Of a DNA stretch of 64,000 nucleotides, positions 13,728-49,031 are shown piece after piece (position 1 is the first letter of the stretch; each line of letters opens with the position of its first letter). This DNA comes from Blautia sp. (GTDB taxonomy: Bacteria; Bacillota; Clostridia; Lachnospirales; Lachnospiraceae): contig JAMPHB010000004.1 in NCBI GenBank assembly GCA_023663685.1, positions 47,425 through 111,424 on the forward strand, in the 5' to 3' direction. Position numbers and translations under genes: made by a program. The notes beneath the pieces are model-generated. The model was not told the origin of the DNA. It saw nothing but the letters and a program-made list of their open reading frames with translations, and ran no database searches.

Positions 13728-14111
13728 TTACTTCTCTTCCGCCGAATAATAGGGAACAACGATGTATGCATCCCGGTGAATCTGCCCGTCCGACAGTCCG
13801 TTCAGATCACTGACTTCGCGGATAAAGGACTCCTTGTCCATAACGCCATCTACCGTATAGGTGTCTGCAATATCCCAGAGGGTATCTCCCCTCTCAAGGC
13901 GGATACTTGTATAATACTTGTGTAAAGCTTCCGCCCTGCCGGAATTCGCCAATGTCCGGATGCTGCTTCCAAGAAGAATGGCAAGACAGACAAAAATAAT
14001 AACAGCCAGCGCAAGCATTTGCTTTTGTACCTGTAAAGCGCGGGCACGCTTTTTTAAGAGGTAGTTTGCCCTCTGTGAAATTTCAGAATTATATACTCTC
14101 TTCATATCCAT
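13728..14111 (-). CDS. LysM-domain membrane protein, YneA-like SOS cell-division inhibitor candidate
   Basis: The 127-residue protein has a basic N-terminus, one membrane helix at about 33-52 and an extracellular LysM domain at about 70-122 (RGDTLWDIADTY, then a hydrophobic end IVVPYY). The start may instead be the second Met, two codons later. Architecture and size resemble YneA of Bacillus, an SOS-induced division suppressor that in Bacillus lies divergent to lexA. Here the promoter carries LexA-type boxes (see 14136-14208), which strongly supports the same role. No lexA is adjacent; a XerS-like recombinase and plsC are nearby instead. Confidence 0.75.
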   Translation of the reverse strand: MDMKRVYNSEISQRANYLLKKRARALQVQKQMLALAVIIFVCLAILLGSSIRTLANSGRAEALHKYYTSIRLERGDTLWDIADTYTVDGVMDKESFIREVSDLNGLSDGQIHRDAYIVVPYYSAEEK

Positions 14112-14332: not shown

Positions 14333-14941
14333 TTATTTATTACAGAAGCAGTCGAAGTCAGGATTAAATGCATAGAAGTTTTTACTGTCCAGATCCTCCT
14401 GCACCATTCGAAGCGCTTCACCGAAACGCTGAAAATGCACAATCTCCCTCTCACGCAGGAAGCGGATCGGGTCGGCCACCTCATGGTCGGTCGCGAGACG
14501 CAGAATATTGTCATAGGTCTTTCTGGCCTTCTGCTCCGCCGCAAGATCCTCCACAAGGTCTGCGATGGCATCACCGCTGGACTGGAACTCGCAGGCATTA
14601 AACGGGATACCGCCTGCCGCCTGCGGCCAGATACCCGCGGTGTGGTCGATATAGTAGGGGGCAAAACCTGCGGCTTCCAGCTCCTGCGCGCTTAAGCCCT
14701 TCGTCAGCTGACGCACAATGGCGCCGATCATCTCAAAGTGGGCAAGCTCCTCGGTACCGATATCGGTCAAAAGTCCGGCAACTCTCGCATTATAAGTGGA
14801 AAAGCGCTGGGACAGATAACGGGTGGAGGCGGAAAGCTCTCCGTCCGGCCCGCCATACTGACTGATAATATAGGAAGCCAGCTTGGCGTTTGGCGTTGTA
14901 ATATTTACCGGATACTCTAATCGTTTTTCATAACTCCACAT
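14333..14941 (-). CDS. cotJC: Spore coat protein CotJC, manganese-catalase-like
   Basis: CotJC belongs to the manganese catalase family and is laid down in the spore coat of Bacillus and Clostridia, where it may protect against peroxide. Ferritin-like helices carry metal-ligand Glu and His residues in the expected contexts: IGTEELAHFEMI at about 63-74 and AEQKARKTYDNIL and REREIVHFQRFGE further on. The length of 202 is normal for CotJC. It is the last gene of cotJA-cotJB-cotJC, with a 3-bp gap after cotJB. Confidence 0.94.
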   Translation of the reverse strand: MWSYEKRLEYPVNITTPNAKLASYIISQYGGPDGELSASTRYLSQRFSTYNARVAGLLTDIGTEELAHFEMIGAIVRQLTKGLSAQELEAAGFAPYYIDHTAGIWPQAAGGIPFNACEFQSSGDAIADLVEDLAAEQKARKTYDNILRLATDHEVADPIRFLREREIVHFQRFGEALRMVQEDLDSKNFYAFNPDFDCFCNK

Positions 14942-14944
14942 AGA

Positions 14945-15253
14945 CTATCTTCCTCCTTCCCACGGCATCGGCGCCGTATTCCAGTCCCACTCCGCAAGAG
15001 GCCCGCCAGAGAAGGCGTTTAACTGGCAAAAACGCTCCTCATAGACTCTTTTTGCGGAATTATAGAGTTCTGTGCACTGATTAAAGTATTCAAGCGCCTC
15101 CTTATCATTTGGATGTGTGTCCATATACAGAAGCATATCGTAAGCGCAGAAGCCCAGCATGGACACCCACTCAAAAAGCTCCCTCTGGTTCATTCTCATC
15201 TCACAGTTTGCCTGCGTATTCTGCTGGTTCATTATATTTTGAGGATTCATCAT
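14945..15253 (-). CDS. cotJB: Spore coat protein CotJB
   Basis: The 102-residue protein has the CotJB signature: LFEWVSMLGFCAYDMLLYMDTHP at its centre (split here as LFEWVSML and YDMLLYMDTHP) and a C-terminal PLAEWDWNTAPMPWEG. It begins with an Asn/Gln-rich tail. CotJB is a small coat component needed together with CotJC. Its start overlaps the cotJA stop by 4 bp. Confidence 0.94.
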   Translation of the reverse strand: MMNPQNIMNQQNTQANCEMRMNQRELFEWVSMLGFCAYDMLLYMDTHPNDKEALEYFNQCTELYNSAKRVYEERFCQLNAFSGGPLAEWDWNTAPMPWEGGR

Positions 15254-15456
15254 CTTCTTCTACCTCCCCTGCACCTTCCGGTAAATGGCATATCTAATTC
15301 GGGGAAAATGGTTCCGGTCATAAGCGCGCGCTTCGGGTCATAAGTCTGTCCGAAGGTCTGCCAGGGCACATAGGCCATGCCCACCACCCAGTTTGCGCAA
15401 TCGTCTTTGTCACCAGTCCTGCCACGGCCTGTCATATTCATGTCGCAATCCATCAT
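15250..15456 (-). CDS. cotJA: Spore coat-associated protein CotJA
   Basis: The 68-residue protein carries the CotJA core AYVPWQTFGQTYDPKRALMTGTIFPELDMPF, of which AYVPWQ and GTIFPELDMPF are the most diagnostic. The C-terminus is a short Arg/Gly-rich tail. It is the first gene of the cotJ operon, which in Bacillus is read in the mother cell under sigma E. No convincing sigma-E promoter could be assigned by eye in the 63 bp to the upstream terminator. Two adjacent ATG codons are possible starts. Confidence 0.93.
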   Translation of the reverse strand: MMDCDMNMTGRGRTGDKDDCANWVVGMAYVPWQTFGQTYDPKRALMTGTIFPELDMPFTGRCRGGRRR

Positions 15457-15520: not shown

Positions 15521-15553
15521 AAAAAAAGCGCCTCTGCTTTTACAGAGACGCGT
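15521..15553 (-). terminator. Terminator of the DUF5717-DUF5716 operon
   Basis: CGCGTCTCTG and CAGAGGCGC form a stem on the minus strand, followed by seven T residues. The stem includes the stop codon of the coiled-coil gene, so the operon ends here and cotJA is separately expressed. Confidence 0.85.
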
Positions 15554-16778
15554 TGATTTCTTCAAGCTTCCTTATAATCTGCTGTACCTGCGGGCCGTTA
15601 CTGTCCAGCTGGTTCACCTGACCCATGACCTCCTTTTGCATGTCGGTGATGGTATTGATATTGTATTCGATTCTCGCCCGAAGCTTTTGCCTGCGGGTGA
15701 GAAGGTCATGCTTGAGCTCCACCATCTCCCGGGGGTCGAGAATGGCGTTGGCATGGTTTGCCCACACCTTTGCGTCGTAAAAATGCGCCTCCTGCAGCGT
15801 GAGCACAAGCTCTCTGGTATAGTGATCCAGATTATCGTTATTGCGCCGGAACTTTTCCCTCTCCCGCATCTCCTGCTGGTAGAGCTCAAACATGTGAGCC
15901 AGATCCCGGGAATTTTTTGCGTGATATTTTTCACAGGTATAATCCACGGCATTTTTAATGTTGACATACTTGATTTTCACATGGTTTTCCAGCGTGATGG
16001 CATGGTTCCGGTTCACGTCCGCCTGCCGGATTTCCTTTCCCGCATCCTGATACCGGACAAGGAGAAAAACGCCAAGGACTGCCGCAAGTCCGGTAGCGAG
16101 CAGCATGGGAATCTGGGTGTTCTGTTTCAGAACAAGCGTAAGGATAAGCAAAAAAGCCTCTAAGGTGGCATAAATGACCAAAAGATACACGGAGAGACGG
16201 CGTATAGTCTTTTGCTGTTCTTTTCCCTCAGATTTCTGCATAGCCCACTGGAGCTTTTCCCCTTCCAGATAGCTCATATCCTTCTTGATGGCGTCAAGGT
16301 AGGTCTCGTTGGATTTGAGACGCTTGATTACACCCGGAAGCTGTGTCTCCTCCGCCTGCAGCTGGGCAAACTGTGTATCCGGCAGATGGCGTTTTGTTTT
16401 TAAAAAATCTGTGCGTTCCTGCTCCAGACTGACCATGTGGGTCGCGCACTCCACAAGCGGAGCTTTCTCCTCCGTGGTCATATTTTCGATGGTCTGAATA
16501 TCGTTCAGATAATTTGTCACAATCTGATACTCTGTGCGGGTATCCTCCAGCTCCCGGGAAATATCAATCATCTGCTCGCACAGAGCGATGACGTCATGTC
16601 CGGCCTCGATACTCTTTTTGGTGCGGGGGCGCGGAGTTTCGCGCGCCGGCTTCGCCTGCTCTTTTTCTTTCTCCTCCCCCAGCTGGGCATAGTGGGTGCC
16701 GGCCGCCTCCTCGCGGTATTCCTCCCGCTCGTATTTATTTTTGCGTCTGCTTCGAAATAGTCTCTCTAATAGCTTCAT
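15540..16778 (-). CDS. Membrane coiled-coil protein, last gene of DUF5717/DUF5716 operon
   Basis: I do not recognise a family. The 412-residue protein begins with a very basic stretch (about 8-20), has charged coiled-coil helices at about 60-190, a membrane hairpin of two helices at about 195-217 and 222-242, and a second long coiled-coil at about 255-410. Both coiled-coil parts should face the cytoplasm with the hairpin as anchor. It starts 3 bp after the TPR-like gene and is the last of four tightly packed genes. By position it is a likely membrane tether for the DUF5717/DUF5716 proteins, which is inference. Confidence 0.75.
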   Translation of the reverse strand: MKLLERLFRSRRKNKYEREEYREEAAGTHYAQLGEEKEKEQAKPARETPRPRTKKSIEAGHDVIALCEQMIDISRELEDTRTEYQIVTNYLNDIQTIENMTTEEKAPLVECATHMVSLEQERTDFLKTKRHLPDTQFAQLQAEETQLPGVIKRLKSNETYLDAIKKDMSYLEGEKLQWAMQKSEGKEQQKTIRRLSVYLLVIYATLEAFLLILTLVLKQNTQIPMLLATGLAAVLGVFLLVRYQDAGKEIRQADVNRNHAITLENHVKIKYVNIKNAVDYTCEKYHAKNSRDLAHMFELYQQEMREREKFRRNNDNLDHYTRELVLTLQEAHFYDAKVWANHANAILDPREMVELKHDLLTRRQKLRARIEYNINTITDMQKEVMGQVNQLDSNGPQVQQIIRKLEEINASL

Positions 16779-16781
16779 ATC

Positions 16782-17597
16782 CTACATCCTACAGTTTTTC
16801 CGATAGTCTTCCTTCCATGTGAAAATCAGCGCGGCAATTTCCTGCTTTGCCTGCCCTGCCTCTTCTGCCATAATGCTCTTTAAGCGTTCTTCAAAGGCAA
16901 GAGCTGTGTCTGTGCGGGTGGCAAGGGCAAATTCCTCCTTAAGCTGCTGTATTTCACTCTCGTCCAGATGGTACTCCCCCGCCCTGGCGGCAAACGCCTC
17001 CCCATCGTGCATACACAGACTGCACAGCAGCATTGCCCGGAGAGATTCCATGGACTGGTTTTTTCCGTATGCCTGCCCATAACAGTGAAGAGCCTCCCCG
17101 AAGAGAAACAGACGGGCGTAAGCTGTTCCAAGATTGTGCCAGACAGTTCCCACGATGAGGGCGTTCTCGTTCTTCACTTCCTCAGATTCCAGCAGACGCT
17201 TATACTCATAGATGCTGCTGATATATTTTTCGTTTTCCATGAGCCGGTCTGCCCTGAGCTTGCTGCACTCAAAATCCGTCTTCTCCTCCATCTGGTGAAC
17301 TACCAGCAGGATCTCTTTGATCTCCTTTGGAGAATAATAGCAGGTGTCCACCAGAATCGTCTCGACAAACTGCGAGAGGCTTTCTGTACTTCGAAGCTTC
17401 TCCGCAAGCTTATAGAGTCCCATCTCCTGCTCCACCCATGCGCAGAGCTCCTCACTCTTAAAGGAGCTGTCTAAAAGGTAAGTGTTGCCTGCAATATAAT
17501 AACACAGCTCCTCCATAGAGTAAAGATTTACTCCCGCGCCCTCCACATAAAAGGGAAGGGCAGCAATCGGTTCATTGCAAAATAATAACTCTCCCAT
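16782..17597 (-). CDS. TPR-like helical protein of the DUF5717/DUF5716 operon
   Basis: The start at 17597 follows a GGGGGA site placed just after the upstream stop codon; a longer frame beginning inside the upstream gene is less likely. The 271-residue product is almost all helical. A tetratricopeptide-like pair is visible at about 140-185 (WHNLGTAYARLFLFGEALHCYGQAY). The first 40 residues look like a small alpha/beta domain. No catalytic motif is seen. Its place between the Hsp70-like gene and the membrane coiled-coil gene suggests an adaptor in a complex. Confidence 0.72.
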   Translation of the reverse strand: MGELLFCNEPIAALPFYVEGAGVNLYSMEELCYYIAGNTYLLDSSFKSEELCAWVEQEMGLYKLAEKLRSTESLSQFVETILVDTCYYSPKEIKEILLVVHQMEEKTDFECSKLRADRLMENEKYISSIYEYKRLLESEEVKNENALIVGTVWHNLGTAYARLFLFGEALHCYGQAYGKNQSMESLRAMLLCSLCMHDGEAFAARAGEYHLDESEIQQLKEEFALATRTDTALAFEERLKSIMAEEAGQAKQEIAALIFTWKEDYRKNCRM

Positions 17598-17607
17598 TCG
17601 CGTCCCC

Positions 17608-18837
17608 CTACATCGACATTGTGTATTTCCAGATTTTGTCCGTGCCCCGGAAGAATTCTCCAAAGCCCAGATCCCGAATTTCTATCTCGATACGGTCGTC
17701 CGAGACGGGCTTTGCCAGAATCCGCACCCTTGTCGTCTTATCGGGGCGCGGAGGCAGGTCAGTGAGCTCCAGCGTCTCGATCTTCGCCTCCCGGCTGTTG
17801 GGAAGCTGCTTCCAAAAATCCACAGAGCCTGTTCCGGATAAAATCACCTCGCACTCCCCCATCGCCTCAAACCAGTTGCGCCCCGCGCTGACTAAATTGT
17901 GAAAAGCCATCGTGCCCTTGTCCCTCACTTTGAGACTCAGATTGAACTTCATTTCGTTCTCACCCATATAAATGCAGGGCCAGTCCCTTTCACGCGCGGC
18001 AGCCGCATAGCAGGCTCCCTTGGAAAATAAGTTTTTCCCGAGGAATGCCCGGCGTCCCCGGCAGAGATAATTTAAAGACTCCTTCATCCAGTCGCCGTCG
18101 AAGCCGTCCCCAACCAGATATACCGTGGAGATCATATGTCCCTCAAAGGATTTTTGCAGCAACCGTAGAAATGCTTCGTCCCGCTCTCCCTCTATCGACG
18201 CCCGGCTGTTCTCATGGATGGACACGACCTGCGGCTTTGTGCGCCGGTCACGCTTCAGCTCGAAGGAGCTGACCGTATCCCCGGTGCATTCAAACAGAAA
18301 TACTTCGTGGAGCCACAGCTCCTCTTTCTGGGACAGGGCATAATAATAAAAGCTCTCCTTATGGTCTGTCACCATGAATTTTTCCGGCGGAATGCTGAGG
18401 AGTGAGGCAACTCTCCAGAACACTTCCATGTTTTCTTTATTCAGTCTCTCGACGGAGAGCACCAGCCTTCCCATTGCACCGGGACTGCCGAGCTTCTGCG
18501 GAAGCTCTATAACCCTGCGGAGAAACAGCGCTAAGAGCTCAACCGCCTCATAGTTCTCCTCGCCGACGCCGATCACCTCATGGTTCACCGCCCGCCGCAG
18601 CAGAGAATCCACACAGATTACCTCGCTGGTCTTTGCCATGCGCTTTGCCTCGTCTCCGTAATACCAGAGTCCGAGATTCTGACGTCTGGCAAGAATCGCA
18701 GGAATGTGGTACAGCTCGCTGCCCGCGACGGTGCTCACCGTGTCCGGCTCGTCCATATCCGGTTGATAGTAGCTTACCATGGCAAAGGCGTCATTTAAGT
18801 CAATGCCAAGGTCATAGGTCTTTTTCTTCTCTTCCAT
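17608..18837 (-). CDS. DUF5716-type protein, degenerate Hsp70/actin-fold
   Basis: The 409-residue protein reads like an eroded Hsp70 nucleotide-binding domain. Its start has DLGIDLNDAF (9-18) in the place of the Hsp70 phosphate-1 loop GIDLGTT. Then come IPAILA (45-50) and YGDEAKRMA (60-68), matching IPS-A and GQ-AKR-A of DnaK, then LSVERLNKENMEVFWRVASL (127-146) in the place of VPAYFND-QR-A, and LVGDGFDGDW (241-250) with FSKGACYAA (271-279) in the place of LVGGSSR-P and A-GAA. Key glycines and the DLGGGT loop are missing (FECTGDTV instead), so ATPase activity may be lost. I believe this is the DUF5716 family. It begins 9 bp after the DUF5717 gene. Confidence 0.75.
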   Translation of the reverse strand: MEEKKKTYDLGIDLNDAFAMVSYYQPDMDEPDTVSTVAGSELYHIPAILARRQNLGLWYYGDEAKRMAKTSEVICVDSLLRRAVNHEVIGVGEENYEAVELLALFLRRVIELPQKLGSPGAMGRLVLSVERLNKENMEVFWRVASLLSIPPEKFMVTDHKESFYYYALSQKEELWLHEVFLFECTGDTVSSFELKRDRRTKPQVVSIHENSRASIEGERDEAFLRLLQKSFEGHMISTVYLVGDGFDGDWMKESLNYLCRGRRAFLGKNLFSKGACYAAAARERDWPCIYMGENEMKFNLSLKVRDKGTMAFHNLVSAGRNWFEAMGECEVILSGTGSVDFWKQLPNSREAKIETLELTDLPPRPDKTTRVRILAKPVSDDRIEIEIRDLGFGEFFRGTDKIWKYTMSM

Positions 18838-18846
18838 ACGCTCATC

Positions 18847-21800
18847 CTAAATAATCTGAAACAGCTTTTTCGTCGCTTCATCAAAGGCCACATACTGCTT
18901 CATATTGTGGTACAGAGTCGATTCGTCCTGCAGGGTTCCGGAAATCAGCATCTGGTTGATCAGGCCGTAACGGCTCTCATCCTCTGCGGTATATACATCG
19001 TTGTCCGTGATCCGGCTGCTCTCAGTGACCTCTACCTGATTGCCGTTTTCTTTTGATATGTAATACTGTATCGTCTCCCCGAAGAACATGACAAAGGATT
19101 TTACAAAAATGCCACAATACACCTCGGACATATCCTCTGTCACAAAATTCTCCCCATCCTCGTCCCGGCTGTAGTGAAGCGTCACATGGCTTTTCGGGGC
19201 GGCGCGGAACTCCAGAAAGGTCTTGTCATAGAGATGATATTTCTGTATCAGCTGGCGGCTCAGCTTCCGGTAAAAGGCAAAATACATATTGCGGCGCGTG
19301 TACTCGCCAAGAAGCTCCTCCTCGATGGAGGGCTCATGCTCCTTCTCCTCCGCCAGGGATTTAAAAAGGGCGAGCCTGCAGGCGTCATTCAGCTCCTGAT
19401 GTGCAATATAGCGCGTCTTAATCAGCCGGAGCAGCTCCGGGTGGATCGGCGCATCCTCCACAAAATAGGCCTGTGCGCTGGCACTTAAAAATGCGAGGAT
19501 TACAAGCTCTTTTCCCCCTGCGTTGTAGTAGCTCTCAAAGATGGCCTCGCCCTCATGCAGATCATGGCCTCCATAGACCATCTGTACAAGAATCCGCTCC
19601 TCCAGCTCGAAAGCATCCACCTGAAACCTTCCTGCCGCCTTCCAGACTTCGCACATCCGCTCTGTCGGTCCGTTATAATAGCGGCACAGATACTCCAGCA
19701 TGGTGTCGTTATATTTTTTCTGGAAAAAGGAGGTCTCTGTGAGAAGAAGAAGGTATTCATCCGCCTCCTCGCTGTCCTCGTCCTGCCGCCCGATCATGGC
19801 GCTCGCCAGCGCGACCCTGGCGGCAGCGCCCAGCTGATCCATACCGTAAATCTGAATCAGCTCATAAGCCTGTTCATAGAGACGGTTTTCCACCAGAGCA
19901 TCCAGCATAAAGCGCCTCACTGTCTGGGGCATCTGCGAAAAATCCGCCTGCTCCAGATATGCCCTCACGTCTCCGTCATCCTCCCTTGTCCGGTAAAAAC
20001 GCAGAATTTCCATTGTAGTCTGGGACTGATAGACCGGGGAAAGCTCCTTCGTAAAAAGCATTCGGTGAAAGTACTGCTGATCCTCCGGAGAAAAACGCCG
20101 GTAGCTTTTGCGCTTCTCAAAATATGGAATCAGGTAAGGAAGCTCTTCCGGCGCCAGATGCATACATTTTGTCAGATAGCGCTCGGGCTCCATCAGTTTT
20201 TGCAGGCGGTAGGACACGCTGCCGATATACCTTCGTCCCTTCTCGTCTTCGAACAGTATCACAGAATCCTTTGTATACATCTGGAAATAGGCAGACTGCT
20301 CCACGATGGAAACAATCTGCGGCTCCTTTAGCTGCCTCTGGTAGATGATGGCCCGCACCATGCGGGAATCAAAGACTACCAGCTTGTGTGTAAAGAGGAT
20401 GCGCGCCAGACAGTGCGCGATTTCTTCGTCCACAAAGCCAAGCTCCAGCATATCCTCGTAGAGCACTGCAAGATTGTCGTCCATATGCTCGGCCTCAATC
20501 TGTTCCATGGCAAAGCGTCCCATGATGCGCCGGTACTTTTCGTAGACCTCAGGATTTTTCTCCTTATTGGCAATGATATTATTGTAAAGAATCGCTATTT
20601 TCCGGTAGGAAAGGCTGCTCTTATACTGAAAATACATCTGGATGATCTTTGGCACCGGTGCAATCCCGCGTTCATCAAAGGATAAAAGGTATGCCTCATA
20701 CAGGCTGGTGATGCGAAGCTCCAGCTCAATTCCCATCTCAAACCAGTGATGGTACTGTTTGTCAAAGCGCTGTGCGCGGATCAGATAGCTGCAGATGATA
20801 CCGACATACTCCGGTCTTGGGTCGATTCCGTAGGCAGCCTCCAAAAGCCCGTAGGGTATGGGGTCAAAGCCGTTGTTCATATCCACCACCTGAAAGATCT
20901 GTGCCGCCAGCTCTTTATTCAATGCCTGGCGGCGCAGAGCCCAGCGCAGAATCTTAATCTCGAAGGTGCCCAGCTTTGCGAGAAGGTAAGGATCCTGACA
21001 ATAGAGGTAATAGGCTTCCAGATACAGATAGGGAGTGTTCGCCCCCTTCATAATCCAGTACTGGACAGCTTCCAGCTTGTGGGCGTTATTGTTGTAATAC
21101 TCCTCTTCCAAAAAGGAGAGTACCCAGAAGAGAAGCACGGAATTTGGGTTTTCATGGAAAATAAGCTCAATCTCCCGGGTCATTTTATCCACATAGGCAG
21201 GCTCCCGCTCCATGAGCGTCATAAGATAAAGGTAATAGCCCCACACCGGCGACTTTTTGTCGTGCCAGTCGCGCCGGAAATCTTCAAGTATCCACTCCGC
21301 CTCCTGCCGCTGGCGGTTGATCAGAAAGGCCTGCGCTTTCATCAGGGGATACATGGGCTCATCCGGTTCCAGCACATGCAGATGATTCAGGATATCTATG
21401 GTTTCATTCGCCCACACACCGGTAACGATCCGGTTCAGACGGTAGGCCTGATACAGTTCCATGATTCCGGCTCTGTCCTCCCGTATCTGCTGGCGGATGT
21501 TTTCCTCCTTCCGTATCTGTGCCCCCTTGTGAGCCCTGACCTCGATGTAGCGGGTCTCATATACCGTGGAGAAGCTGATCCGGCCATAATTCCAGCCTGC
21601 GTGCATCCTATCGTAGTCGATCAGGTACTGATAGGGGCAGGTGCTTCCGAGGAAATCCTCCGAAGTCAGCCGCTCATCCGTCAGCCGGAGAAAATCTGCG
21701 TCGGATGAGACACTGATTGAGAGGTATCCCCACTCGTCTTTTCGAATCTCCACGGTCTGCTGGCTGGTCTCTGTAAGCTCTGCTATGCGGCAGCCTGTCT

Positions 21801-22386
21801 GGTCGATGCGGAAATTGATGGGATTTTTTCTGCCAATTCCAATCAGGAACTCCTCCATGTTCTGGGGCGAAGGTTTTGCGCCGACAATGCCCTTATAAAT
21901 CATGGCCTCCTTATATTCAGCCTTGCTGATGATACTGGAAAAGCCTTTGTGATAGAACAGCCGGTAGGCCTCGTCCCACTTCTCGCGGGCAAGTGCGGTA
22001 AAATCGTGCAGATTCCTGACCGGCCCCATAGAACTGTCCGCGCAGGGTCTGGAAATGGACACACAAAAAGAAAGGGTATGCTCACTTTGATTACATACAA
22101 TGACAAAGCTACCCTCTACGGTATCGCCCTCCACGAGCCCTCTGCTATGAAACTGATAGCGAATCCGCACCTCTTCCCCGTCAAACTGCGGAGTCAGACA
22201 CTCCATTCTGGGGCTTGTGGAATAGACAATCCCCCGAAGAGAAGTATGGTTTGTGCCTGCTAAAGTGAAGCCTCCCGAGTACTCCTGCTCCTCAAGCACA
22301 GACAGCTTCAGCTCCTCTGGAATGGAGAGCGACGGCTTTTCGCAGTCAAATCTGCCTGCGGCAATCTGTCTGATTTGTTTACGCAT
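18847..22386 (-). CDS. DUF5717-type giant helical-repeat protein
   Basis: This is the largest gene in the window (1179 residues). The N-terminal ~115 residues look like an Ig-type beta domain (alternating hydrophobics, GIVYSTSPRMECL, GSFVIVCNQ). The middle (about 140-1040) is a long alpha-solenoid of helix pairs with no exact repeat, and the last ~120 residues return to beta strands (SHVTLHYSRDE, VKSFVMFFGETIQYYI). There is no signal peptide or membrane helix, so it should be cytoplasmic. I believe it is the DUF5717 family, which I know only as a protein of unknown function in Lachnospiraceae. It is the first gene of a four-gene operon with a good promoter. Confidence 0.8.
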   Translation of the reverse strand: MRKQIRQIAAGRFDCEKPSLSIPEELKLSVLEEQEYSGGFTLAGTNHTSLRGIVYSTSPRMECLTPQFDGEEVRIRYQFHSRGLVEGDTVEGSFVIVCNQSEHTLSFCVSISRPCADSSMGPVRNLHDFTALAREKWDEAYRLFYHKGFSSIISKAEYKEAMIYKGIVGAKPSPQNMEEFLIGIGRKNPINFRIDQTGCRIAELTETSQQTVEIRKDEWGYLSISVSSDADFLRLTDERLTSEDFLGSTCPYQYLIDYDRMHAGWNYGRISFSTVYETRYIEVRAHKGAQIRKEENIRQQIREDRAGIMELYQAYRLNRIVTGVWANETIDILNHLHVLEPDEPMYPLMKAQAFLINRQRQEAEWILEDFRRDWHDKKSPVWGYYLYLMTLMEREPAYVDKMTREIELIFHENPNSVLLFWVLSFLEEEYYNNNAHKLEAVQYWIMKGANTPYLYLEAYYLYCQDPYLLAKLGTFEIKILRWALRRQALNKELAAQIFQVVDMNNGFDPIPYGLLEAAYGIDPRPEYVGIICSYLIRAQRFDKQYHHWFEMGIELELRITSLYEAYLLSFDERGIAPVPKIIQMYFQYKSSLSYRKIAILYNNIIANKEKNPEVYEKYRRIMGRFAMEQIEAEHMDDNLAVLYEDMLELGFVDEEIAHCLARILFTHKLVVFDSRMVRAIIYQRQLKEPQIVSIVEQSAYFQMYTKDSVILFEDEKGRRYIGSVSYRLQKLMEPERYLTKCMHLAPEELPYLIPYFEKRKSYRRFSPEDQQYFHRMLFTKELSPVYQSQTTMEILRFYRTREDDGDVRAYLEQADFSQMPQTVRRFMLDALVENRLYEQAYELIQIYGMDQLGAAARVALASAMIGRQDEDSEEADEYLLLLTETSFFQKKYNDTMLEYLCRYYNGPTERMCEVWKAAGRFQVDAFELEERILVQMVYGGHDLHEGEAIFESYYNAGGKELVILAFLSASAQAYFVEDAPIHPELLRLIKTRYIAHQELNDACRLALFKSLAEEKEHEPSIEEELLGEYTRRNMYFAFYRKLSRQLIQKYHLYDKTFLEFRAAPKSHVTLHYSRDEDGENFVTEDMSEVYCGIFVKSFVMFFGETIQYYISKENGNQVEVTESSRITDNDVYTAEDESRYGLINQMLISGTLQDESTLYHNMKQYVAFDEATKKLFQII

Positions 22387-22428
22387 TACCTACCTGCTCT
22401 TTTGTGTAAAACATTATGAATTCATTCT

Positions 22429-22457
22429 ATTATATGATAAAAAGCGTTCACATGCAA
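22429..22457 (-). promoter_or_regulatory. Promoter of the DUF5717-DUF5716 operon
   Basis: TTGCAT (22457-22452) and TATAAT (22434-22429) are 17 bp apart on the minus strand, 43 bp before the ATG. The sites lie just after the P-type ATPase stop, so the operon has its own vegetative-type promoter. Confidence 0.7.
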
Positions 22458-47513: not shown

Positions 47514-49031
47514 TTAGATAATAATACAGATGAGTCCTCCGTTGCTGTCATTGACAATTTTTTGCATGGTGTCCTGAAGCTTTAACTGGCATTCGTCGTC
47601 CATCTGCATGATTTTGCTGCGGATGCCGTCCTCCATCAGCTCTCCCACGGATTTGCCAAAAATATTTGTCGTCCACAGACCTTCGCCGCTCTCTTCTCCG
47701 GCTTTTATGTACTCGATCAGATCCCGCGCCTGCTCCTCGCTCCCCACGATGGGCGCAATCTCCGTCTCAATATTGGCCTTGATCATATGAATGGAGGGAG
47801 AGATGGCCCGCATCTTCACGCCGAATTTGCCGCCGTGCTGAATCATAACCGGATCCTCCATCTTAATGTCAGAAAGTCCCGGCATCACTACGCCGTAGCC
47901 CTTCTGCTCCACCGCCTCCATGGCGTCTTTCACCTTCTCGTAGTCCGCTTTCATCGCAGAGAGCCCCCGCAGCATGGAAATCATCTGGTACTCGCCGCTG
48001 ATTTTTACCCCGGTCATTTCACTGACATAGGCGAAATAGAACTGATCGTCAATCTCCATGCGCACGGTCACAGTGCCGTCGGAGAGATCTATTCCCGGAA
48101 TTAAAATCTCCCTGAAAAACGCCTGCCCTGCTTTTTCGTTGGCCAGTGCGGCCAGATCCGAATCGCCAGTGATGGTGTATACATCCTTCGCCCGCTCCAC
48201 ATGGGCAAGCATCCCGGAGGCGGCGGAGATGATGGCAGACTTTACCGGGTGGCTTCCCGGGAGCATCTCTGTCCACTTCGGAATGAAAAAGTCTATGCGG
48301 GTAATGGGAAACTCTAAGAGGATGGCATTCATAATCTGCATCACGTCCTCTTTTCGCATCTGCTGACAGTTGACCGGAATGACCATCGTACCGTAGCTCT
48401 CGCGCATAGAGTCCGCCAGCCGCCGGGTCTCCTCACTGTATGGCTTCCCGGAATTCAGCACAATCACATAGGGCTTTCCAATTTCCTGCAGCTCCTCCAC
48501 CGTGGTGCGCTCCGGCTCTGTGTAGCTGTCCCTTGGAAGCTCTCCGATTGAGCCATCCGTGGTCACTACAATCCCAATCGTAGCATGGTCGCGGATGACC
48601 TTGCGCGTCCCGATGCGCGCCGCCTCCACGAAGGGAATCTCTTCGTCAAACCAGGGGGTCTTCACCATTCGGCTCCCGTCCCCCTCCATGTGGCCGTTTG
48701 CCCCATCCACCATGAATCCCACACAGTCGATCAGCCTCACCCGTATGTCGCTTTTATCCGCCAGCGTGATGCACGCCGCCTCCTGCGGAATGAATTTCGG
48801 CTCCGTGGTCATAATGGTCTTTCCTGCGGAGGACTGGGGCAGCTCATCTTCTGTCCGCTTTTTCACATTCTCGTCCTCTATGTAGGGGAGCACGAACAAA
48901 TCCATGAACCGCTTGATAAAGGTGGATTTACCGGTGCGTACCGGGCCGACCACGCCGATGTAGATCTCGCCGCCGGTTCTGCCCTGAATATCTTTATATA
49001 AGTCAAATTCTTTATTTTCCCTGCCGTCCAT
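47514..49031 (-). CDS. spoIVA: Stage IV sporulation protein A
   Basis: SpoIVA is an ATPase that polymerises on the outer forespore membrane as the base of the spore coat. The Walker A motif is GPVRTGKST at about 29-37, and the tail (GLICIII at the end) is the conserved C-terminus that anchors it. The 505-residue length agrees with Bacillus SpoIVA (492). The Shine-Dalgarno sequence lies inside a long hairpin (49036-49077). Expression should be in the mother cell; no sigma-E promoter was assigned by eye. Confidence 0.96.
   Translation of the reverse strand: MDGRENKEFDLYKDIQGRTGGEIYIGVVGPVRTGKSTFIKRFMDLFVLPYIEDENVKKRTEDELPQSSAGKTIMTTEPKFIPQEAACITLADKSDIRVRLIDCVGFMVDGANGHMEGDGSRMVKTPWFDEEIPFVEAARIGTRKVIRDHATIGIVVTTDGSIGELPRDSYTEPERTTVEELQEIGKPYVIVLNSGKPYSEETRRLADSMRESYGTMVIPVNCQQMRKEDVMQIMNAILLEFPITRIDFFIPKWTEMLPGSHPVKSAIISAASGMLAHVERAKDVYTITGDSDLAALANEKAGQAFFREILIPGIDLSDGTVTVRMEIDDQFYFAYVSEMTGVKISGEYQMISMLRGLSAMKADYEKVKDAMEAVEQKGYGVVMPGLSDIKMEDPVMIQHGGKFGVKMRAISPSIHMIKANIETEIAPIVGSEEQARDLIEYIKAGEESGEGLWTTNIFGKSVGELMEDGIRSKIMQMDDECQLKLQDTMQKIVNDSNGGLICIII

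What the first reader, a model, noticed from the sequence alone, without database searches (positions are those of the whole stretch)
15521..22457. Four-gene operon of unknown function: giant solenoid, Hsp70-like, TPR-like and membrane coiled-coil proteins
The genes sit 3 to 10 bp apart behind a TTGCAT-17-TATAAT promoter and end in one terminator, so they form a unit. The products combine a 1179-residue cytoplasmic solenoid with beta domains at both ends, a degenerate Hsp70/actin-like protein, a TPR-like helical protein and a two-helix membrane hairpin between long coiled coils. Together they look like a membrane-tethered scaffold or chaperone-like complex. The families are, as far as I know, without assigned function. 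The operon neighbours the cotJ spore genes but has its own vegetative-type promoter.
Basis: partly seen in the sequence, partly recalled or inferred. Interest (0 to 1): 0.78.

Follow-up and report, generated by a model that had tools for sequence, protein, structure and literature searches.

The report
Dead Hsp70 scaffold of gut Clostridia
A four-gene cluster, three genes of which form a near-universal core in one large family of Clostridia, looks like the stripped-down remains of an energy-driven protein-folding machine: the working Hsp70 motors are gone, and an Hsp70 that can probably no longer burn ATP survives with its scaffold and, in some genera, a membrane anchor.

Summary
The operon is real: A (1179 aa, Pfam DUF5717), B (409 aa, DUF5716), C (271 aa, TPR), D (412 aa, two hydrophobic segments), 3-10 nt apart, with a terminator. 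A is in 148 of 150 genomes of the window's family and was not found beyond the order in draws of 299 and 293 genomes. B and C follow A in 51 of 51 loci read, fused in two; D is in 61 of 150 genomes.

Sister families carry a longer version: A (usually split), two catalytic Hsp70s, a long GrpE-like protein, a degenerate Hsp70, an Hsp70-vWA fusion, then orthologues of C and, in two families, D. The window's family lacks the catalytic Hsp70s, GrpE-like factor and Hsp70-vWA, and keeps the degenerate Hsp70, which also lacks about 75 residues covering subdomain IIB, the lobe that exchange factors move, in 51 of 51. I read this as a chaperone machine turned into an ATP-independent pseudo-Hsp70 scaffold, comparable to yeast Ssz1. 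It is not spore-specific (44 of 45 SpoIVA-less genomes keep A). Client and role are unknown; structure prediction was off, so complex formation is inferred.

The parts
18847..22386 (-). Gene A, 1179 aa, DUF5717: N-terminal ~300-aa region (a separate ~390-aa gene in most sister-family loci) followed by a TPR-type solenoid and the DUF5717 C-terminal domain
   Evidence: Pfam DUF5717_N E=3.4e-282 and DUF5717 E=1.4e-97; TPR families in relatives; split/fused forms
17608..18837 (-). Gene B, 409 aa, DUF5716: pseudo-Hsp70 with degenerate catalytic motifs, without the subdomain IIB region and without a lid
   Evidence: DUF5716_C E=1e-106; family profile matches DnaK chains over query 10-408, E=1.8e-17; tree; motifs; IIB-region deletion
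16782..17597 (-). Gene C, 271 aa: N-terminal ~110 aa without PDB match plus TPR repeats
   Evidence: TPR_2 E=7.5e-4, below its cut-off; family profile vs designed TPR proteins; orthologous to a ~387-aa TPR protein in sister families, hhalign E=3.8e-27
15540..16778 (-). Gene D, 412 aa: two hydrophobic segments (199-217, 223-241) between long, probably helical parts; probable membrane tether
   Evidence: hydropathy; orthologue in two sister families, hhalign E=4.9e-46; strong match in 61 of 150 family genomes
15528..15551 (-). Intrinsic terminator (10-pair stem, T tail) overlapping the end of D
22429..22457 (-). Candidate promoter TTGCAT-17-TATAAT in the 80-nt gap behind the upstream P-type ATPase gene
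   Evidence: sequence; weak -35, not supported by the scan

Best explanation
The operon encodes a cytoplasmic scaffold, with a membrane tether in some genera, that derives from a specialised multi-Hsp70 machine. In the ancestor the operon made a giant TPR solenoid (A), two Hsp70s with intact catalytic motifs (B1, B3), a long GrpE-like exchange factor (X), a degenerate Hsp70 (B2), an Hsp70-vWA fusion (B4), a TPR protein (C) and in some lineages a membrane protein (D). In the window's family B1, X, B3 and B4 were lost, and the remaining pseudo-Hsp70 (B) lost the nucleotide-clamp lobe IIB. Shown here: homology, orthology, gene order, the absences, the motif decay and the deletion. Inferred: the direction (loss, from the trees); A, B and C form one complex (invariant order, two natural B-C fusions); B no longer cycles ATP and needs no exchange factor; its remaining substrate-binding beta part is a static docking or low-affinity peptide-binding module on the A/C scaffold; D, where present, holds the complex at the membrane. 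The client is unknown; I favour assembly or quality control of a housekeeping structure at the cell envelope.
For: A in 148 of 150 family genomes; 4 of 299 in a phylum draw, all 4 of this family; 93 of 196 in the order draw; class draw of 293: 13 hits in the family, 8 short fragments outside the order. Sister-family loci with B1+X+B2+B3 together: 22 of 30; Pfam HSP70, GrpE, DUF5716_C and VWA in their proteins. C and D orthology. Family B (51 of 51) nested in B2 (support 0.979), sister to B3; A tree puts the family (51, support 0.945) beside two families with the full operon. Ten catalytic positions: all kept in 27 of 27 B1, 22 of 22 B3, 12 of 13 B4; in 0 of 22 B2 and 0 of 51 family B, where the catalytic Lys and Glu are kept in 0 of 51. 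IIB region 27-41 residues in 51 of 51 family B, 95-117 in 22 of 22 B2. X in 0 of 51 family loci and, in 100 family genomes, only 6 weak matches. B3 absent in 30 of 30 family genomes (best 190 bits; 5 controls 918-1093). B-C fused in two loci. The two A-less genomes have B only at DnaK level.
Against: No experiment, structure or interface was available; 'complex' rests on gene order and fusion. Three sister-family loci (L100, L101, L114) have A without any of these Hsp70s in the stretch read, so A can part from them. D is missing in 89 of 150 family genomes, so a tether through D cannot be essential to the core. The phosphate-1 Asp is kept in 42 of 51 family B, the adenosine-loop Gly and Phe in 50 of 51, so some nucleotide binding is not excluded. 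An HMM of the catalytic relatives finds only 31 of 51 family B, and the beta part of the window's B only at E=0.59; the Hsp70 model did not list window B in the own genome: the descent is visible through B2, less so directly. B1 and B4 were not searched genome-wide in the family. The envelope role is a guess.
Confidence: 0.62

Rival explanations
1. It is a reduced conflict or defence system of the HSP70/GrpE type described in GAP1-N2 gene neighbourhoods (chaperone-thresholded effector systems).
For: Kaur et al. 2020 (PMC7159879; passages, and section 29) describe firmicute and actinobacterial neighbourhoods with HSP70, GrpE, in a subset a second HSP70 without its peptide-binding domain, and FNIII proteins fused to DnaJ or TPR; a role near the membrane is proposed.
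Against: 148 of 150 family genomes carry A, mostly as a single match; A-B-C order is the same in 51 of 51 loci; no PADLOC match at E<=1 for the four proteins; no GAP1 family among the Pfam hits of A at E<=1; a crude GTPase pattern hit 2 frames in 45 sister-family stretches, both outside the operons.
Confidence: 0.1
2. It serves sporulation, as its position beside cotJA-cotJB and a manganese-catalase gene suggests.
For: The three cotJ-type genes lie directly downstream; the genome has SpoIVA.
Against: 45 of 150 family genomes lack SpoIVA over the cut-off and 44 of these 45 have A; cotJB and cotJC are in none of the other 50 family stretches read (cotJA too short for that test).
Confidence: 0.05
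3. The short operon is ancestral and sister families added catalytic Hsp70s, the GrpE-like protein and Hsp70-vWA later.
For: The A tree was midpoint-rooted, so its root alone does not exclude this.
Against: In the B tree, rooted on DnaK, the family's B lies inside the B2 clade, and B2 is sister to B3 of the same operon; the two nearest families, f120 and f134, have the full set; the family's B carries a deletion relative to every other Hsp70 of the set.
Confidence: 0.08
4. B has become an actin-like adaptor (PilM/FtsA-like) and the operon builds a membrane-bound assembly platform unrelated to protein folding.
For: Actin-fold ancestry, hydrophobic-hairpin protein D next to it, giant scaffold A; the sister Hsp70s B1, B3 and B4 hit MreB and B3 weakly PilM.
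Against: The family profile still matches the Hsp70 C-terminal beta part (DnaK chain to residue 500) and B descends from Hsp70; B itself has no PilM or FtsA match at E<=1.
Confidence: 0.15

Closest known systems
Pfam DUF5717 (PF18984 + PF18983) and DUF5716_C (PF18980)
   Same: A and B score far above the cut-offs
   Different: The families carry no function. Their link to a catalytic Hsp70/GrpE operon and the origin of DUF5716 from Hsp70 were not found in the searches made (listings)
Ssz1 of the fungal ribosome-associated complex
   Same: A non-canonical Hsp70 that lacks the lid, keeps a substrate-binding beta domain, does not hydrolyse ATP, needs no classical exchange factor and sits in a fixed complex (PMC7083937, abstract and passages)
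   Different: Ssz1 binds ATP and works with a J-domain partner and a canonical Hsp70 at the ribosome; here no J-type motif was seen by a crude pattern near the sister-family operons, the catalytic partners are absent from the family's operon, and the subdomain IIB region is deleted
GAP1-N2-type HSP70/GrpE neighbourhoods (Kaur et al. 2020, PMC7159879)
   Same: The sister-family operons combine HSP70s, a GrpE domain, vWA and TPR parts
   Different: No GAP1 match and no GTPase in the operon found; near-universal in the family; the window's operon has neither catalytic Hsp70 nor GrpE
Specialised DnaK1-DnaJ3-GrpE system of cyanobacteria (PMC9239167, abstract and passages)
   Same: An extra Hsp70 system dedicated to a surface process, interacting with membrane-bound motors
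   Different: ATP-using, with J-protein and GrpE; no homologue of A, C or D is mentioned in the passages seen

Membership tests
Hsp70 chaperones (DnaK) | Common descent with Hsp70 | tested here: met
   B tree; family profile (f1 B plus B2) vs PDB DnaK chains, E=1.8e-17
Hsp70 chaperones (DnaK) | Catalytic motifs: phosphate-1, Lys, Glu, phosphate-2 | tested here: not met
   Window B reads GIDLNDAF, SLLR, HK, ECTGDTVS there; 0 of 51 family B keep all ten positions, none keeps more than 4
Hsp70 chaperones (DnaK) | Subdomain IIB of the nucleotide-binding domain | tested here: not met
   27-41 residues where every other Hsp70 of the set has at least 95, 51 of 51; 76 DnaK positions between 206 and 303 nearly empty; that this stretch is IIB is recalled
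Hsp70 chaperones (DnaK) | Substrate-binding beta domain | tested here: inconclusive
   Family profile aligns to a DnaK chain up to residue 500; the window sequence alone matches this part only at E=0.59
Hsp70 chaperones (DnaK) | Helical lid | tested here: not met
   Median 120 residues after the linker region against 240 in the two DnaKs; B1, B2 and B3 are short too, medians 131, 123 and 144 (the 2 fused B-C proteins are longer)
DUF5717/DUF5716 families | Score over Pfam cut-off | tested here: met
GAP1-N2 HSP70/GrpE conflict systems | GAP1 protein and TRAFAC GTPase in the neighbourhood | tested here: not met
   No GAP1 match of A at E<=1; GTPase only tested by a crude pattern in sister-family stretches, two hits outside the operons
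GAP1-N2 HSP70/GrpE conflict systems | HSP70 plus GrpE in the neighbourhood | tested here: not met
   Present in sister families; not in the family's operon
Ssz1/RAC | J-domain partner | tested here: inconclusive
   No J-like motif by a crude pattern in the ORFs of 45 sister-family stretches; family loci and the rest of the genomes not searched
Ssz1/RAC | No ATP hydrolysis | not testable with these tools
   Motif loss only
Known anti-phage systems (PADLOC) | Match to a defence model | tested here: not met
   No match at E<=1 for the four proteins

The most novel reading that the evidence does not exclude
A whole bacterial family converted an ATP-driven multi-Hsp70/GrpE machine into an ATP-independent chaperone scaffold: it kept a pseudo-Hsp70 that has physically deleted the nucleotide-clamp and exchange-factor lobe, discarded every catalytic partner, and made the rest a near-universal core complex with a housekeeping role.
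Probability: 0.4. Interest if true: 0.8.

Novelty: new variant of a known kind. Interest (0 to 1): 0.64.

Why it matters
Hsp70s are regarded as nucleotide-driven machines. Here a family with 148 carrying genera in one draw of 150 keeps an Hsp70 that has lost its catalytic residues, the lobe on which exchange factors act and its operon-encoded catalytic partners, together with a dedicated 1200-residue scaffold. That is a natural experiment in what an Hsp70 does without ATP. It ties two Pfam families without function to an ancestor with clear biochemistry, and it names a living relative, Defluviitalea phaphyphila, in which the longer machine can be compared with the reduced one. It also singles out an uncharacterised core gene set of a large clostridial family.

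Tried and rejected
Rejected: a sporulation role; GrpE-like X as ancestor of D (hhalign probability 0.1); C and D as inventions of the window's family (the first jackhmmer, missed the distant orthologues; extended stretches showed them). NCBIfam gave only matches far below cut-off and PADLOC none. A fused B-C alignment was useless: MAFFT put the C rows on the B part. Alignment A3 was too weakly conserved for a collection scan and was not used; A10 was made and not used. Plasmid search for A: no match. 'DUF5716' gave one paper, on another subject by its listing; one search gave 19 papers, none relevant by the 15 titles shown. Weak PDB matches of A and D (E 0.03 and above) were not used.

Rows left out of counts: of the 148 family genomes with A I read the window and 50 others as neighbourhoods, chosen mainly for long contigs; of the 58 other-family hits I read 30; of these I extended 15 downstream. 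One B-labelled frame (L092, 198 aa) was left out of the B tree. Gene starts in my maps are mechanical first starts, so gap medians are approximate.

Recalled, from no call: the names valyl-tRNA synthetase, folylpolyglutamate synthase and HisC/CobD-like aminotransferase for flanking genes (read from sequence); which part of DnaK is subdomain IIB; the E. coli numbers behind 'K70'.
Full report
Observation. Four genes lie on the minus strand at 22386-15540: A 1179 aa, B 409 aa, C 271 aa (ATG at 17597) and D 412 aa, with gaps of 9, 10 and 3 nt and a terminator at 15551-15528. The proposed promoter exists as written but has a weak -35 and lies in the 80-nt gap behind a P-type ATPase gene on the same strand; it is plausible, not proven. 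Among the other 80 stretches fetched, only L045 has even a distant relative of that ATPase (24% identity), which fits an operon boundary there.

Families. A is DUF5717 (E=3.4e-282 and 1.4e-97) and B DUF5716 (E=1e-106); C has only weak single-sequence TPR matches and D nothing over cut-off. NCBIfam and PADLOC add nothing. In the paper library 'DUF5717' is in 0 papers and 'DUF5716' in one, on another subject by its listing.

Distribution. The window's genome is a 2.32-Mb assembly, 82% complete, with one copy of A. In a draw of 150 genomes of the same family, each of a different genus, 148 have A. The two without it, G022 and G075, match the B profile at only 52 bits, about the level of another Hsp70 frame in a third genome (49 bits; its true B scores 502), so B is gone there too; C was not tested in them. 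A phylum draw of 299 gave 4 hits, all in this family and including the window's genome. An order draw of 196 gave 93 hits: 35 in the same family, 58 in other families. A class draw of 293, with a profile made from the other families, gave 21 hits: 13 in the family and 8 outside the order. The latter cover 76-166 of 897 positions, best E=5e-11, and I take them for other TPR proteins. The order is Lachnospirales: G465, of the same order, shares its contig length with a contig of Defluviitalea phaphyphila, which NCBI taxonomy places in Lachnospirales.

Gene order. I read the window and 50 other family loci. A is followed by B in 51 of 51; C follows as a separate gene in 49 and is fused to B in 2 (L054, 709 aa; L087, 684 aa). 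Median gaps are 15 nt (A-B), -4 nt (B-C) and 7 nt (C-D), none above 100 nt (mechanical starts). D follows in 21 of 51 loci. Genome-wide, D has a strong match in 61 of 150 genomes (E<=4.2e-68); 4 further genomes match at E 7e-5 to 5e-4, which I do not count. In 56 of the 61 it is on the contig that carries A; in G007, G030, G044 and G076 it is on another contig, and for G125 the place of A was not listed.

The longer operon in sister families. I read 30 loci of other families and extended 15 of them downstream. A is usually split into a ~390-aa and a ~900-aa gene. In L105, read protein by protein, come B1 (558 aa, HSP70 8e-70), X (565 aa, GrpE domain 9.5e-10; in L095 3e-13), B2 (496 aa, DUF5716_C 6.6e-14 and HSP70 4.8e-9), B3 (547 aa, HSP70 2.6e-58) and B4 (696 aa, HSP70 5.6e-92 plus VWA). 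B1, X, B2 and B3 occur together in 22 of 30 loci. Three loci (L100, L101, L114) have A and none of these in the stretch; others have part of the set, some cut by contig ends. In 13 of 15 extended stretches a TPR protein of the cluster orthologous to C follows (a 195-aa fragment in L136); in 5 of 15, from two families, a protein with two hydrophobic segments orthologous to D follows. hhalign: C E=3.8e-27, D E=4.9e-46. A different membrane protein (here E) lies upstream of A in 11 of 30 loci; of these only 3 were extended downstream and none of the 3 has D, and none of the 5 with D has E.

What is missing. In a tree of 137 Hsp70-like sequences rooted on the genome's own DnaK, all 51 family B proteins form one clade inside B2 (73 taxa, support 0.979); B3 is sister to that, then B1; B4 lies outside with weak support. 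In the midpoint-rooted A tree the family (51, support 0.945) is sister to f120 (0.962) and next to f134 (0.996), both with the full operon and D. No family locus has a B1-, B3- or B4-type protein: each of the 51 B frames falls in the family clade; X is in 0 of 51. Genome-wide, X gave 6 weak matches in 100 family genomes, 5 to the GrpE-like end in frames of 218-245 aa, as expected of ordinary GrpE, and 1 to its middle part in a 720-aa frame. B3, with a mean column identity of 74% in sister families, gives 918-1093 bits in 5 positive controls but at most 190 bits in 30 of 30 family genomes, the level of DnaK-type frames. In a class draw of 293 only 11 genomes passed E<=1e-60, the best at 220 bits, so no B3 orthologue was seen beyond the order. 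B1 and B4 were not searched genome-wide across the family. The window's own genome has two canonical Hsp70 genes elsewhere, both outside the B clades.

Decay of B. Of ten catalytic positions (phosphate-1, Lys, Glu, phosphate-2) all are kept in 27 of 27 B1, 22 of 22 B3 and 12 of 13 B4 (one truncated). None of 22 B2 keeps all; Lys is kept in 0 and Glu in 1. None of 51 family B keeps more than four; Lys and Glu in 0. The phosphate-1 Asp survives in 42 of 51, the adenosine-loop Gly and Phe in 50 of 51. Between LGG and the adenosine loop the family's B has 27-41 residues in 51 of 51; B2 has 95-117 (22 of 22), B3 108-110, B1 141-144, B4 117, DnaK 112. The missing part is 76 positions between residues 206 and 303 of the genome's DnaK, which I take for subdomain IIB. 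Exchange factors act by shifting subdomain IIB, and GrpE contacts IB and IIB (PMC12915176, passages); loss of X and of this lobe fit together. The family profile still matches a DnaK chain to residue 500, without the lid, but for the window's B alone the beta part is only weakly visible. B1, B2 and B3 also have short C-termini, so the lid was probably lost before.

Function. The nearest working model is Ssz1, a lid-less Hsp70 with a rudimentary substrate-binding domain that does not hydrolyse ATP and needs no classical exchange factor (PMC7083937, abstract and passages). The nearest genomic analogue found is the HSP70/GrpE theme of GAP1-N2 neighbourhoods (PMC7159879, passages and section 29), but GAP1 and operon GTPases were not found. 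A spore role is unlikely: 105 of 150 family genomes have SpoIVA over the cut-off, and of the 45 without, 44 have A, the exception being G075. cotJB and cotJC are in none of the other 50 family stretches. A defence role is unlikely given near-universality and constant order. I propose an ATP-independent scaffold-chaperone, tethered by D where D is present, with a housekeeping task, probably at the envelope. The task is inference.

Verdict. The operon is real and its A-B-C core is unexpectedly well conserved in the family. Its origin from an Hsp70/GrpE machine is well supported; its present biochemical action is a testable proposal.

Noticed in passing
L101, L103, L107-L111, L113-L116, upstream of A: A second kind of membrane protein (E, ~300-480 aa, hydrophobic segments near 20-40 and in most also 110-165) in 11 of 30 sister-family loci. 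Of 4 scanned only one has a Pfam match over cut-off, a marginal Nsp1_C coiled coil. Possibly an alternative tether to D.
   Followed up: partly
L054:7323-9449 and L087:7551-9602: Natural B-C fusion proteins, a hint that the pseudo-Hsp70 and the TPR protein bind each other.
   Followed up: partly
G000:C31:36196-37917 (outside the window): A second DnaK-like Hsp70 (592-aa frame) besides DnaK in the window's genome; further Hsp70-like frames of about 560-600 aa appear in several family genomes and could be partners of B.
   Followed up: no
window 14333-15456: cotJA, cotJB and a manganese-catalase (cotJC-like) gene directly downstream; cotJB and cotJC not found in the other 50 family stretches read.
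   Followed up: yes
window about 48306-49010, minus strand: SpoIVA gene (G000:C26:95730-96434), so the organism keeps at least part of the sporulation set.
   Followed up: no
upstream of A in 36 of 81 loci: A mostly divergent aminotransferase-like gene (33 of 36 on the opposite strand), in the family (23) and sister families (13); an ~880-aa gene that reads as valyl-tRNA synthetase lies downstream in 14 family loci and 4 extended sister loci. Names recalled, not searched.
   Followed up: partly
L092/L136 (G449): In the family nearest to the window's, the orthologue of C is in two pieces (123- and 195-aa frames), either decay or an assembly error.
   Followed up: no
window 13728-14111, minus strand: A 127-aa gene gave no Pfam match at E<=0.001; its end reads to me like a LysM motif.
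   Followed up: no
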